The notes beneath the pieces were generated by a model. That model was given only the letters and a program-made list of their open reading frames with translations. It made no database searches and was not told the origin of the DNA. The position numbers were made by a program, and so were the translations under genes. A stretch of 64,000 nucleotides of DNA, from the NCBI RefSeq assembly GCF_004135385.1, contig NZ_CP035493.1, positions 868,001 through 932,000 on the forward strand, given 5' to 3'. Origin of the DNA: Xylanimonas protaetiae. Its GTDB lineage: Bacteria; Actinomycetota; Actinomycetes; Actinomycetales; Cellulomonadaceae. Shown piece by piece: positions 21,386 to 24,926 of the stretch (positions are counted from its first letter, which is position 1; every line of letters begins with the position of its first letter).

Positions 21386-22831
21386 TCAGAGGATCGGCGT
21401 GCAGCCCGTCGGGTCGCCGAGCGCGGCCGTGGCCAGGAGGCCGTCGAGGCCGAGGCCCTCGGGCACCGGGCGCGGGTCGTCGACCACGACCCACAGGCCG
21501 TCGACGACGTCGTACTGCGCCTGCGGGCCGTCCGCGACGAGCGACCGGACCGCCGCGACGAGCCGCTCGACGTCGGCGCCGGGAGTGCCGACGCCCACGG
21601 AGGCGCGCACGGCCCCGGCGTCGAAGCCCAGGCGGCCCAGCAGCGGGTGCGCGCAGAACCGGCCGTCGCGCACGCCGATGCCGTGCTCGGCGGACAGGAA
21701 CGCCGCGACGAGGCCGGGGTCGTAGCCCGCGACCGTGAAGGTCACCACGCCGACAGGGTCGACGGCGTCGGCCCAGCAGCGGACCACCTGGACTCGGTCG
21801 ATCTCGGCGAGGCCCGCGACGAGCCGGTCGCGCAGCGCGGCCTCGTGCACGGCGAGCTCGGCCGGGTCGACGGCGCGCAGCGCCTCGGCCGCGGCCGCGA
21901 GCGCGACGGCACCGATGACGTTGGGCGACCCGGCCTCGTGGCGGGCGGGTCCCTCGTGCCAGGTCGTCTCGGCGACGCGCACGCGGCGCACCGCCCCGCC
22001 GCCGGCGAGGTACGGGGTGCCGGCGTCGAGCCAGTCGCGGCGGCCCACGAGGGCGCCGGCGCCGTAGGGCGCGTAGGTCTTGTGGCCGGAGAACGCGACG
22101 TAGTCGACGCCGGACGCGGCGAGCGAGAACGGGCGGTGCGGCACGAGCTGAGCGCCGTCGAGCACCACGCGGGCGCCCGCGGCGTGCGCGATCTCGACCA
22201 CGGCCGCGACGGACAGGGCCTCGCCCGTGACGTTGGAGGCGCCCGTGATCGCGACGAGGGCGTAGGGGCCGCCGTCGCGGAGCTCCTCGCGGACGGCGTC
22301 GAGCGTCGCGGCGACGGACGGGCCGCCGGCCAGAACGGTCGCGTCGGTGTCCCGCTGCCACGGCAGCAGGTTGGCGTGGTGCTCGATGTCGAGCACCAGC
22401 ACGCGGCCGGGTGCGCCGGTGGCGGGGTCGGCGGGGACGCACCCGGCGAGCAGGTTGAGCGAGTCGGTGGTGTTGCGCGTGACGAGGACGAGGTCGTCCT
22501 CGCGCGCGCCGACGAACGCGCCGATGGTGCGGCGGGCCTGCTCGTACAGCGCGGTGGACACCTGCGAGAGGTACCCCGCGCCGCGGTGCACGGACGCGTA
22601 GAGCGGCAGGACGCGGTCGACGTGGTCGGCCACCGCCTGGAGCGCGGGCGCCGACGCGGCGACGTCGAGGTTGGCGTACGGGACGCGGCGGCCGTCGACG
22701 AGCGGCACGAGCGTGTCCGCGCCGACGACGGGCAGCACGGCGGCGACGCCGTCGACCCGGGCGGGGGTGTAGGTCGGGCTGGCGGCGTGCTCGGCCACGG
22801 CGGTGGGGGCGGCGGCGGCGGTCGCGGTCAT
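21386..22831 (-). CDS. class V aminotransferase, cysteine desulfurase-like
   Basis: PLP enzyme of 481 residues in the SufS/CsdA-like fold-type I family. The Schiff-base Lys is about residue 251 in FSGHKTYAPYGAG, the ALYEQARRTIGAFVGA and RNTTDSLN segments are family-typical, and DIEHHANLLPW carries the conserved His. It would take sulfur (or selenium) from cysteine, or act on a related amino acid. ATG at 22831 follows AAGAGGAG; the frame continues upstream through the riboswitch, which is not coding. A SAM-IV aptamer in the leader and a divergent rhodanese-metZ operon point to a sulfur-assimilation role rather than routine Fe-S assembly. Confidence 0.85.
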   Translation of the reverse strand: MTATAAAAPTAVAEHAASPTYTPARVDGVAAVLPVVGADTLVPLVDGRRVPYANLDVAASAPALQAVADHVDRVLPLYASVHRGAGYLSQVSTALYEQARRTIGAFVGAREDDLVLVTRNTTDSLNLLAGCVPADPATGAPGRVLVLDIEHHANLLPWQRDTDATVLAGGPSVAATLDAVREELRDGGPYALVAITGASNVTGEALSVAAVVEIAHAAGARVVLDGAQLVPHRPFSLAASGVDYVAFSGHKTYAPYGAGALVGRRDWLDAGTPYLAGGGAVRRVRVAETTWHEGPARHEAGSPNVIGAVALAAAAEALRAVDPAELAVHEAALRDRLVAGLAEIDRVQVVRCWADAVDPVGVVTFTVAGYDPGLVAAFLSAEHGIGVRDGRFCAHPLLGRLGFDAGAVRASVGVGTPGADVERLVAAVRSLVADGPQAQYDVVDGLWVVVDDPRPVPEGLGLDGLLATAALGDPTGCTPIL

Positions 22832-22878
22832 GGCGGTCTCCTCTTGGCGCTTGCCGTGCGGGGAGGTGCGCACGGCCT

Positions 22879-22957
22879 GGTCGTCACCCGGGGCACCCCG
22901 CCGCGGAGGGAGGGTTGCCGGCCAGCGAGCCGGGGCTTCGCGCTGGCACTCGTGACC
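22879..22957 (-). promoter_or_regulatory. SAM-IV riboswitch
   Basis: On the minus strand it runs from GGTCACGAGTGCCAGC to CCCCGGGTGACGACC. It contains AAGCCCCGGCTCGCTGGCCG, the CGGCAACCCTCC core and the GGGGTGCCCCGGGTGA pseudoknot-forming segment, a close match to the actinobacterial SAM-IV consensus as I remember it. The aptamer ends about 50 nt before the class V aminotransferase start codon, so it can control transcription or ribosome access of that gene. Confidence 0.92.
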
Positions 22958-23005
22958 GGTCGCCACTCTGGGCGCTCCGTCGTCGCGCGTCAACGGCTCC
23001 TGGCG

Positions 23006-23021
23006 CGAATCTCACGATTCG
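23006..23021. promoter_or_regulatory. inverted repeat between two divergent riboswitch leaders
   Basis: CGAATC-TCAC-GATTCG lies midway between the two SAM aptamers, in the only stretch available for both promoters. I cannot assign convincing -35/-10 pairs here, and no regulator is known for it. Confidence 0.35.
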
Positions 23022-23079
23022 GGACCATCATGCGAGACGTTGCGGACACCGGCGCCGCCGCGTCGTACGATCCCGGCGA

Positions 23080-23161
23080 CCATCCCGAGCGGCCGACTGA
23101 CGTGGCAGGACGACGCCGCAGCAACCCTGCGACAGCAGGGTGCTCCAGCCACGATCGATGG
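23080..23161 (+). promoter_or_regulatory. SAM-I-like (S-box) riboswitch, short form without P4
   Basis: The sequence shows GAGCGGCCGACTGACGTGGC, then GGACGACGCCGCAGCAACC, a small hairpin CTGC-gaca-GCAG, and GGTGCT. These align with the SAM-I core (P2 with kink-turn, GCAACC, GGTGC). P2 is supported by a base-pair change: CTG/CAG replaces the usual GGG/CCC. A P4 arm is missing. The P1 strand GATGG (23157-23161) enters the GGAGG ribosome-binding site (23160-23164) of the rhodanese gene, so control of translation start is likely. The SAM-I/SAM-IV variant class is an alternative name. Confidence 0.7.
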
Positions 23162-23169
23162 AGGCACTC

Positions 23170-23652
23170 ATGAGCGCGATCACCGCCGTTCCCGCCGAGG
23201 GCTACGCGGGCGACCTCACGCCGGAGCAGACGTGGGAGCTGCTCACCACCGACCCGAACGTCGTCCTGGTGGACGTGCGCACGCAGGCCGAGTGGGAGCA
23301 GATCGGCGTGCCCGACGTCGCGAGCACGGGCAAGCAGGCCGTGTTCACGCAGTGGGTGCTCAACAACGGCACGCCCAACCCGGCGTTCCTCGCCGACCTC
23401 AAGGCCGGACTCGCGGCCGCCGGTGCCGGCGACGACGCCTCGCTCGTGTTCCTGTGCCGCTCCGGCCAGCGCTCGGTCGCCGCCGCGCGCGTCGCCACGG
23501 CCGCGGGCCTCGCGCCGTCGTACAACGTGCTCCAGGGCTTCGAGGGCGCGCCGGGGCTCTCCGGCGTCCGCGACGTGGAGGGCTGGAAGGTCGCCCGGCT
23601 GCCCTGGCGCACCAGCTACACCGACGGCGCCCCCGCGGGCGACGCGCGATGA
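23170..23652 (+). CDS. rhodanese-like sulfurtransferase
   Basis: Single-domain rhodanese of 160 residues that carries sulfane sulfur as a persulfide. The active-site loop is CRSGQRS with catalytic C96, and VLVDVRTQAEWEQIG near residues 33-48 is the conserved first part of the fold. ATG at 23170 is 5 nt after GGAGG, which abuts the SAM-I-like aptamer. The stop codon overlaps the metZ start by 4 nt (ATGA). It probably supplies or detoxifies sulfur for O-succinylhomoserine sulfhydrylation. Confidence 0.92.
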   Translation: MSAITAVPAEGYAGDLTPEQTWELLTTDPNVVLVDVRTQAEWEQIGVPDVASTGKQAVFTQWVLNNGTPNPAFLADLKAGLAAAGAGDDASLVFLCRSGQRSVAAARVATAAGLAPSYNVLQGFEGAPGLSGVRDVEGWKVARLPWRTSYTDGAPAGDAR

Positions 23653-24926
23653 CCGCGCCGATCGTCACCGGCCCCGCGGGCGACGCCACGCGGCCCGGCG
23701 GCTCGGGTCGCGGCCCGCTCCCTGCGAGCGCCCGCCCCCGCACGCTCGCGGTGCGCGGCGGCCACCGCCGCTCCGAGTACCAGGAGACGTCGGAGCCGAT
23801 CTACCTCACGCAGGGCTACGTCTACGACTCCGCCGCCGACGCCGAGGCGGCGTTCGCGGGCGACCTGTCGCGCTTCGTCTACTCGCGCTACGGCAACCCG
23901 ACCGTGCACGCCTTCGAGGAGCGCCTGCGCCTCGTCGAGGGCCCCGAGGCCGAGGCCTGCTACGCCACGGCGACGGGCATGAGCGCCGTGTTCACCGCGC
24001 TCGCCGCGCTGGTCAAGGCCGGCTCGCGCATCGTCTCGGCGCGCGCCCTCTTCGGCTCGACGAACGTCATCTACGAGGAGATCTTCGCCAAGTGGGGCGT
24101 GAGCGTCGACTACGTCGACGGGCACGTGCTCTCGCAGTGGGAGGAGGCGCTCTCCCGCCCGGCCGACGTCGTGTTCTTCGAGTCGCCCTCCAACCCCATG
24201 CAGGACCTCGTCGACGTGCGCCGCGTGGCCGAGCTCGGCCACGCGGCCGGTGCTGTCGTCGTCGTCGACAACGTGTTCGCGACGCCCGTGCTCCAGAAGC
24301 CCCTCCAGCTCGGGGCGGACGTCGTCGTGTACTCGGCGACCAAGCACATCGACGGGCAGGGCCGCGTGCTGGGCGGGGCGATCCTGGGCTCGCGCGCGTT
24401 CCTCGAAGGGCCCGTCCAGACCTTCATCCGCAACACCGGGCCGTCGCTCAGCGCGTTTAACGCGTGGGTGCTGCTCAAGGGCCTCGAGACGCTCGACCTG
24501 CGCGTCCGCGCCCAGACGGACGCCGCGCTCGAGGTGGCGACGGCGCTCGAGAGCCTCGACGGGCTCTCGGTCGTGCGCTACCCGTTCCTGACGTCGCACC
24601 CGCAGCACGAGCTCGCGGTGGCGCAGCAGGCCGGCGGCGGCACGGTCGTCACGTTCGACCTCGCCGTGCCCGACGGGCTCGACCCCGTCGAGGCGAAGAA
24701 GCGCACCTTCCAGTTCCTCGACGCGCTCCAGGTCATCGACATCTCGAACAACCTCGGCGACGCCAAGTCGATGGTCACCCACCCGGCGACCACGACGCAC
24801 CGCAAGCTCGGCCCGGCGGGCCGCGCCAAGGTGGGCATCAACGAGACGACGGTCCGCCTGTCGGTGGGCCTGGAGGACCCGGCGGACCTCGTCGACGACG
24901 TGACGCAGGCGCTCGCCGCGCTCTGA
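23649..24926 (+). CDS. metZ: O-succinylhomoserine sulfhydrylase
   Basis: PLP enzyme of the Cys/Met metabolism family, 425 residues, making homocysteine directly from an acylated homoserine and sulfide for methionine synthesis. The Schiff-base Lys is K232 in YSATKHIDGQGRVLGG, a segment typical of MetZ rather than of MetB or MetY, and YSRYGNPT lies near residue 78. It is translationally coupled to the rhodanese and under the same SAM-I-like riboswitch. An inverted repeat follows the gene at 24935-24995. MetY-type activity with O-acetylhomoserine cannot be fully excluded. Confidence 0.92.
   Translation: MTAPIVTGPAGDATRPGGSGRGPLPASARPRTLAVRGGHRRSEYQETSEPIYLTQGYVYDSAADAEAAFAGDLSRFVYSRYGNPTVHAFEERLRLVEGPEAEACYATATGMSAVFTALAALVKAGSRIVSARALFGSTNVIYEEIFAKWGVSVDYVDGHVLSQWEEALSRPADVVFFESPSNPMQDLVDVRRVAELGHAAGAVVVVDNVFATPVLQKPLQLGADVVVYSATKHIDGQGRVLGGAILGSRAFLEGPVQTFIRNTGPSLSAFNAWVLLKGLETLDLRVRAQTDAALEVATALESLDGLSVVRYPFLTSHPQHELAVAQQAGGGTVVTFDLAVPDGLDPVEAKKRTFQFLDALQVIDISNNLGDAKSMVTHPATTTHRKLGPAGRAKVGINETTVRLSVGLEDPADLVDDVTQALAAL

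What the first reader, a model, noticed from the sequence alone, without database searches (positions are those of the whole stretch)
22832..23169. Two different SAM riboswitch classes back to back on divergent sulfur genes
A SAM-IV aptamer (minus, 22879-22957) and a SAM-I-like aptamer (plus, 23080-23161) are about 120 bp apart, controlling a cysteine-desulfurase-like gene and rhodanese-metZ. Both sides of the locus would answer the same metabolite through two unrelated or distantly related RNA folds, perhaps with different affinity or mechanism. This joint layout is worth reporting.
Basis: partly seen in the sequence, partly recalled or inferred. Interest (0 to 1): 0.72.

Follow-up and report, generated by a model that had tools for sequence, protein, structure and literature searches.

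The report
Head-to-head SAM-IV and SAM-I riboswitches
Two different RNA sensors for the same metabolite, S-adenosylmethionine, sit back to back in front of two divergent sulfur operons, the layout is kept across many related genera, and one of the two sensors is a trimmed form of the textbook SAM-I riboswitch.

Summary
Rfam places a SAM-IV aptamer at 22957-22842 (-), 100.4 bits (cut-off 38), and a SAM-I aptamer at 23077-23164 (+), 44.6 bits (cut-off 44.4), 119 nt apart and divergent. They lead a SufS-like cysteine desulfurase and rhodanese-metZ. Of 50 desulfurase loci from one family, 37 (18 of 21 genera) have the aptamers head to head within 86-188 nt; nine keep the orientation at 0.3-3.4 kb. 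SAM-I scores low because it has no P4 helix, not because it is decayed: P4 is missing in 56 of 56 aptamers measured from this order and readable in 30 of 30 from other orders of the class. P1, P2, P3 and PK-1 are kept, P2 and PK-1 with compensatory changes. Most likely SAM closes P1 over the ribosome site, so excess SAM shuts both operons independently. SAM-I control through P1, and SAM-IV before a cysteine desulfurase, are already in print. My searches, in an open-licence library only, showed neither this conserved two-class pair nor the P4-less form. New variant of a known kind; binding was not tested.

The parts
22842..22957 (-). SAM-IV aptamer (P1 22957-22954/22882-22879; PK-1 22934-22930/22891-22887; PK-2 shortened to GCG 22904-22902 / CGC 22849-22847)
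   Evidence: RF00634 100.4 bits; pair positions read from the alignment and checked
22838..22842 (-). AGGAG ribosome-binding site of the desulfurase gene, 4 nt after the PK-2 strand
   Evidence: sequence
21386..22831 (-). SufS-like cysteine desulfurase, 481 aa, with GIGVRDGRFCAH
   Evidence: Pfam Aminotran_5 269 bits; NCBIfam sufS 278 bits, below its 475 cut-off; motif in 30 of 30 stored loci, this one included
22965..22993 (-). likely promoter of the SAM-IV transcript: TTGACG (22993-22988), 17 nt, CAGAGT (22970-22965)
   Evidence: sequence; a TTGAC in the last 60 nt before SAM-IV in 45 of 50 loci, in four of which the script took a copy too close to the aptamer
23009..23038 (.). two overlapping copies of a dyad of the form GTCYCGCAT..ATGCGAGAC (23009-23025 and 23023-23038), upstream of the SAM-IV -35; candidate operator
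   Evidence: YGAGAY within 40 nt upstream of TTGAC in 38 of 50 loci against a shuffled mean of 1.4
23066..23071 (+). likely -10 box TACGAT of the SAM-I transcript
   Evidence: sequence; TACGAT or TAGCAT at the same place in many relatives, by eye
23077..23164 (+). P4-less SAM-I aptamer: P1 23080-23084/23157-23161, P2a 23089-23093/23115-23119, P2b 23097-23099/23106-23108, P3 23120-23126/23139-23144, PK-1 23102-23105/23149-23152
   Evidence: RF00162 44.6 bits; covariation; P4 absent
23160..23164 (+). GGAGG ribosome-binding site; its first GG is the 3' end of P1
   Evidence: sequence; GGAGG at this place in 34 of 42 family loci
23170..23652 (+). rhodanese-domain protein, 160 aa
   Evidence: Pfam PF00581 35 bits
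23649..24926 (+). metZ, O-succinylhomoserine sulfhydrylase, 425 aa, overlapping the end of the rhodanese gene by 4 nt
   Evidence: NCBIfam NF005870 706 bits and TIGR01325 568 bits, both over cut-off

Best explanation
The intergenic stretch carries two divergent promoters, each followed at once by its own SAM-sensing leader. On the plus side a SAM-I aptamer without P4 uses its own P1 helix as the switch: bound SAM stabilises P1 (CCAUC/GAUGG), whose last two bases are the first two of the GGAGG site of the rhodanese gene, so translation of rhodanese-metZ falls. On the minus side SAM-IV, whose PK-2 strand ends 4 nt before the SD in this genome, does the same for the desulfurase. Both units are negative-feedback outputs of the same metabolite: desulfurase, rhodanese and MetZ plausibly form one sulfur-transfer route towards homocysteine, the precursor of methionine and SAM. 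The two RNAs are on different transcripts, so no RNA-RNA coupling is needed; coordination comes from the shared ligand and perhaps from a protein that binds the dyads between them. Shown: the aptamers, their conservation, P4 loss, covariation in P2 and PK-1, SD overlap, gene identities, layout conservation. Inferred: promoters, SAM binding, repression, translation level, the sulfur-relay function, the operator.
For: Rfam matches. Divergent tight pair in 37 of 50 loci, 18 of 21 genera; in 42 of 42 loci with SAM-I a rhodanese relative lies on the same strand downstream, in 38 directly and in 4 about 230-320 nt on. Changes on both sides in P2a, P2b and PK-1: 76 cells against a shuffled mean of 26; slid controls reach 15 at most. 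The 29 aptamers of A1 are invariant in P1 and the P3 core. GGAGG directly overlapping P1 in 34 of 42. Other P4-less copies precede MTHFR (metF) and an ABC transporter ATPase (3 copies examined). [quoted passage not shown]
Against: No binding or expression data. Ligand-free folding without pseudoknots shows no clean switch: P1 forms with probability above 0.5 in 13 of 42 leaders, and the SD region is more unpaired than paired in only 5 of 42; in the window leader P1 is at 0.004 and three of five SD bases are in other pairs. P1 varies only by two U-G cells, so its pairing has no covariation support. In 8 of 42 loci the bases are not GGAGG: GGGAG 5, GGGGC 2, GGACG 1. The window SAM-IV keeps only 3 of 5 PK-2 pairs. 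Three loci of one genus (g5) have no SAM-I in the fetched stretch, and the single R1 match of each of these genomes has no rhodanese, metZ or desulfurase beside it; in G001 the SAM-I lies about 23 kb away.
Confidence: 0.8

Rival explanations
1. The head-to-head layout has no function of its own: two sulfur operons happen to be neighbours, each kept its own riboswitch, and the pair is conserved only because the gene neighbourhood is.
For: Nine loci keep the orientation with 0.3-3.4 kb between the aptamers, one has them about 23 kb apart, so tight spacing is not essential. I saw no sequence feature that ties the two RNAs to each other.
Against: Tight spacing survives in 18 of 21 genera, and other divergent SAM pairs exist: SAM-I/SAM-IV in two genomes of another family and SAM-IV/SAM-IV on a monooxygenase and a flavin reductase in this genome.
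Confidence: 0.5
2. A transcription factor that binds the dyads between the promoters is the real coordinator, and the riboswitches only fine-tune.
For: A YGAGAY half-site within 40 nt upstream of the SAM-IV -35 in 38 of 50 loci, at 14 or 15 nt in 27 of the 38, against 1.4 by shuffling; by eye, similar sites before two or three other SAM-IV leaders of the same genome. A fixed place upstream of -35 is typical of activators (recalled). A strict form of the motif gave 35 sites in 121 genomes against 5 for the pattern read backwards.
Against: The factor is unknown. The 35 strict sites lie in 30 of 121 genomes and by coordinates only some (at least four) are at this locus. In the own genome a strict palindrome gave three places, against one for the control; one is between the two SAM-IV leaders, the other two were not examined.
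Confidence: 0.25
3. The plus-strand element is a decayed, non-functional SAM-I relic that just reaches the Rfam threshold.
For: 44.6 against 44.4 bits; P4 gone.
Against: The same P4-less form is conserved with compensatory changes across families, and the model built from it matches 97 of 198 genomes of the order, with up to 13 matches in one genome.
Confidence: 0.05
4. The plus-strand element is a SAM-I/IV (RF01725) member.
For: Same clan; the search keeps only the best model of a clan, so a weaker RF01725 match would not be printed.
Against: SAM-I/IV is described as lacking the internal loop of P2 (PMC2864571, passage) and PK-1 (PMC6890682, passage); here both are present, and no 3' strand for PK-2 is apparent because the SD and start codon follow P1 at once.
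Confidence: 0.03

Closest known systems
SAM-I riboswitch (S box, RF00162)
   Same: P1, P2 split by an internal loop (k-turn type by position, recalled), P3, PK-1; RBS inside the 3' strand of P1 as reported for SAM-I (PMC2258182, passages)
   Different: No P4: 12-14 nt link P3 to P1, against 24-35 nt with a hairpin in 28 of 30 aptamers from other orders; the script misread the other two, where P4 is readable by eye
SAM-IV riboswitch (RF00634)
   Same: Full-length match with P1, PK-1, P5; SAM-IV before a cysteine desulfurase is reported in Streptomyces lividans (PMC8079986, passages)
   Different: PK-2 keeps 3 of 5 pairs in the window and 4 of 5 in the other three sequences of its genus in A2; the divergent partner is another SAM-clan RNA
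SAM-I/IV variant (RF01725)
   Same: Same clan; common ligand pocket according to PMC6890682 (passages)
   Different: Described without P2 internal loop and PK-1, with PK-2; the element here has the first two and no apparent PK-2
Tandem SAM riboswitches (SAM-II/SAM-V, double SAM-I, SAM-II with SAM-I/IV)
   Same: Two SAM sensors in one control region
   Different: Those are in series on one transcript (PMC9481103, passages); here the two are on opposite strands and different mRNAs

Membership tests
SAM-I (RF00162) | Score over the Rfam gathering cut-off | tested here: met
   44.6 against 44.4 bits
SAM-I (RF00162) | P2 split by an internal loop and PK-1 between P2 loop and the strand after P3 | tested here: met
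   P2b and PK-1 with compensatory changes; PK-1 was not in the search model
SAM-I (RF00162) | P4 helix between P3 and P1 | tested here: not met
   12-14 nt in 42 of 42 family loci and 13 nt in 14 of 14 from elsewhere in the order
SAM-I (RF00162) | SAM binding | not testable with these tools
   Core columns are invariant in A1; which of them touch SAM is recalled, not from a call
SAM-IV (RF00634) | Score over the gathering cut-off; P1, PK-1, P5 | tested here: met
   100.4 bits over the full model, P5 with several non-standard pairs marked; P1 and PK-1 letters complementary
SAM-IV (RF00634) | PK-2 between P3 loop and 3' end | tested here: inconclusive
   93.8% of cells pair over 16 sequences, 16 of 500 shuffles as high; the window keeps 3 of 5 pairs
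SAM-I/IV (RF01725) | P2 without internal loop, no PK-1, PK-2 present | tested here: not met
   P2 loop and PK-1 present, no PK-2 strand apparent downstream
Tandem (same-transcript) riboswitch pair | Both aptamers on one transcript | tested here: not met
   Opposite strands

The most novel reading that the evidence does not exclude
The P4-less SAM-I is a distinct structural subclass of the SAM clan, typical of one actinobacterial order, that has only the parts SAM-I and SAM-IV share (P1, turned P2, P3, PK-1). It would be the smallest natural SAM-clan architecture and a possible bridge from SAM-I (P4) to SAM-IV (no P4, added PK-2/P5); the head-to-head locus then places the putative intermediate and the derived class side by side under the same ligand.
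Probability: 0.3. Interest if true: 0.6.

Novelty: new variant of a known kind. Interest (0 to 1): 0.42.

Why it matters
It gives a natural side-by-side test of two SAM-clan architectures under identical cellular SAM, conserved over at least 18 genera, and shows that P4, readable in all 30 SAM-I aptamers of other orders of the class that I read, can be missing across families of one order while the core stays fixed. That makes the question of what the peripheral domains of SAM-I, SAM-I/IV and SAM-IV contribute directly testable with natural RNAs. It also links a desulfurase, a rhodanese and MetZ into one unit that is probably controlled by SAM.

Tried and rejected
Decayed relic, SAM-I/IV membership and same-transcript tandem were considered and rejected (see rivals and membership rows). 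A thermodynamic on/off switch could not be shown: nested folding of the leaders was mixed and cannot hold the pseudoknot. The candidate operator was followed with two pattern searches that neither named a factor nor defined a regulon; I left it as a lead. Literature: I looked at the listings (25 of 305 papers; 14 of 14; 12 of 19; 12 of 24; 12 of 21; 3 of 3; 8 of 44) and at passages of six papers plus PMC4239095 and PMC3766115; none that I saw describes a head-to-head SAM-I/SAM-IV pair or a P4-less SAM-I. Only open-licence PMC papers are held, and two papers I asked for (the SAM-I/IV structure and the first SAM-IV description) were not, so 'not in print' is not established.

My own error: I gave the rhodanese gene two bases out of frame. 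therefore show no family for it (repeated in frame), and spent the only genome-contig scan on a wrong reading; its two loci (L001, L002) do hold relatives of the locus and were used only as extra examples, except that L001 is one of the 16 rows of A2. In one search two of the 30 lengths for other orders (15 and 19) come from a GATG inside P4; by eye all 30 carry P4. In one search four loci were counted as misses only because the model match reaches the start codon; I count them as direct.

Full report
The observation. cmscan over the whole window gives three matches above cut-off, from two families: SAM-IV at 22957-22842 (-) with 100.4 bits, a second SAM-IV at 1162-1050 (-) with 84.8 bits, and SAM (SAM-I) at 23077-23164 (+) with 44.6 bits against a gathering score of 44.4. 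The SAM-I is the only RF00162 match at E<=10 in the genome (150 of 183 candidates scored); the genome has six SAM-IV matches.

Genes. The minus-strand gene (22831-21386, 481 aa) is an aminotransferase class V protein (269 bits) closest to the SufS family but below its curated cut-off (278 against 475). The region GIGVRDGRFCAH, where I recall the catalytic cysteine of SufS-type enzymes to lie, is kept in form in 30 of 30 loci (the 30 stored out of 50 matches, the window's own among them). The plus-strand genes are a rhodanese-domain protein at 23170-23652 (35 bits) and metZ at 23649-24926 (706 bits against a cut-off of 618). A loose rhodanese active-site pattern was found in 23 of the 30 stored loci; I did not look into the other seven.

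Conservation of the pair. I searched 61 genomes of the window's family for the desulfurase: 50 have it at E<=1e-80, in 21 of 25 genera. For these 50 loci I built two covariance models, R1 from 29 SAM-I and R2 from 16 SAM-IV sequences, and searched the stored stretches. SAM-IV was found in 50 of 50 and SAM-I in 42 of 50, in all 42 on the opposite strand and divergent. In 37 of 50 the two ends are 86-188 nt apart (median 118), in 18 of the 21 genera. In five the gap is 318-1064 nt. A rhodanese relative follows the SAM-I on the same strand in 42 of 42: directly in 38, after about 230-320 nt in four (with the four boundary cases counted as direct). A whole-genome R1 search of the eight genomes whose stretch lacked SAM-I gave, from the coordinates, four with the same orientation at about 2.3-3.4 kb (G016, G030, G040, G043), each followed by rhodanese and metZ, one at about 23 kb, also before rhodanese and metZ (G001), and, in the three genomes of genus g5, one match each that has none of the three genes beside it.

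Some of these sequences are in the training sets of R1 and R2, so their scores lean towards them. The Rfam models, which were not made here, were run on 37 unnamed-genome SAM-I loci: 14 show the tight pair (in one of them, L007, the SAM-I scores 44.4 and is listed but not), and seven of one genus (g23) show SAM-IV about 0.3-1.1 kb away. Those 37 are one best SAM-I per genome, often another copy than the one beside the desulfurase, so the rest are not counter-examples. The locus in G027 (g18) is letter-identical between the aptamers to L001, Xylanimonas oleitrophica, so the window's family is that of Xylanimonas, Promicromonosporaceae in the NCBI taxonomy.

P4 is missing. In the 29-sequence alignment the stretch from the P3 core (GGUGC) to the P1 3' strand (GAUGG) is short. 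Measured by script it is 12-14 nt in 42 of 42 family loci and 13 nt in 14 of 14 aptamers from other families of the order. The 14 are those outside the family among the 20 loci stored from the best R1 matches, and R1 is itself P4-less, which favours such forms; but the family-level search that fed most of the alignment used the Rfam model, whose P4 should favour P4-bearing forms. In 30 of 30 stored RF00162 matches from other orders of the class a P4 hairpin can be read by eye, with 24-35 nt in 28 of them by script; the other two readings are artefacts. These 30 are the best-scoring of the class search, which favours P4-bearing forms in turn. Two short class-level matches that I fetched also seem to have a short P4, by eye. 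R1 matched 97 of 198 genomes of the order, 45 of 73 genera, family members included, with up to 13 matches in one genome.

Structure support. On 77 distinct sequences (alignment A3) the structure with P1, P2a, P2b, P3 lower stem and PK-1 is paired in 99.4% of cells; eight pairs have changes on both sides, 76 such cells against a shuffled mean of 26 with none of 500 shuffles as high, and the slid controls reach 15 at most. PK-1 was not part of the search model and at its most variable position shows C-G 45, G-C 21, U-G 2, G-U 1 and 8 unpaired. P1 has only two U-G cells and the P3 lower stem no change, so they get no covariation support. A3 is fitted to the nested part of the structure, which leans those counts; the plain MAFFT alignment A1 gives the same picture with 25 cells against 7, but there pairs with a change on both sides (4 against 2.8) and further pair types (6 against 5.8) do not stand out from the shuffles.

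Mechanism. The 3' strand of P1, GAUGG, runs into GGAGG, the ribosome site of the rhodanese gene, five bases before the start codon; GGAGG at that place is kept in 34 of 42 loci. [quoted passage not shown] I therefore take translation control through P1 as the most likely mode. Ligand-free folding was not a clean support. For SAM-IV the 3' strand of PK-2 (22849-22847) ends 4 nt before the AGGAG site in the window; of five PK-2 pairs the window keeps three and the other three sequences of its genus in A2 keep four. How SAM-IV acts in the genera with a longer leader was not studied.

A third element. Upstream of the SAM-IV -35 a half-site YGAGAY lies within 40 nt in 38 of 50 loci, at 14 or 15 nt in 27 of the 38, against a mean of 1.4 and a maximum of 6 in 500 mononucleotide shuffles. 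Of the 12 misses, five have no TTGAC in the range used and in four the script took a later TTGAC. It is found also where the SAM-I is far away (L077, L078, L085), so it seems to belong to the desulfurase promoter. By eye, similar sites precede other SAM-IV leaders of the genome. It may bind an activator; no factor was identified.

What is known. SAM-I and SAM-IV share the pocket and differ in the periphery; SAM-IV lacks P4 and has PK-2 and P5, and SAM-I/IV lacks the split P2 and PK-1 (PMC6890682, passages; PMC2864571, passages). S. lividans has SAM-IV before a cysteine desulfurase and SAM-I before threonine genes (PMC8079986, passages). SAM sensors in series on one transcript are described (PMC9481103 and PMC12452182, passages). 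I found no mention of a head-to-head SAM-I/SAM-IV pair or of a P4-less SAM-I in the listings or in the passages read, within an open-licence library.

Verdict. The pair is real and conserved, most simply read as two independent SAM feedback switches on one sulfur-transfer module. The unusual parts are the conserved two-class head-to-head layout and the P4-less SAM-I of this order. Both are variants of known kinds.

Noticed in passing
window 1162-1050 (-): A second SAM-IV (84.8 bits) leads a short Cys-containing reading frame, [11 protein letters not shown], and then what looks by eye like a solute-binding lipoprotein gene: possibly a SAM riboswitch stacked on a cysteine leader peptide.
   Followed up: no
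own genome G000:C1:849258-849370 (-) and 849559-849686 (+), locus L170: A divergent pair of two SAM-IV aptamers, 188 nt apart, before a luciferase-like monooxygenase and a flavin reductase.
   Followed up: partly
L152, L161, L173 (two genomes of another family of the order): Another divergent SAM-I/SAM-IV pair about 100 nt apart; in L173 the SAM-IV side leads a solute-binding protein (SBP_bac_5), the SAM-I side a short frame VDRTSHVAILRRVVDFCLTGSSGCR; the frame I tried for the next gene there had no Pfam match.
   Followed up: partly
order-wide: The 11 listed genomes of one genus (g38) hold 5 to 13 matches each to the P4-less SAM-I model, an unusual expansion.
   Followed up: no
window 23009-23038: Conserved dyad between the two promoters, candidate operator of an unknown regulator.
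   Followed up: partly
L002 (Pseudarthrobacter albicanus): A SAM-IV (83.2 bits) lies upstream of the rhodanese-metZ pair itself, where the window's family uses SAM-I.
   Followed up: no
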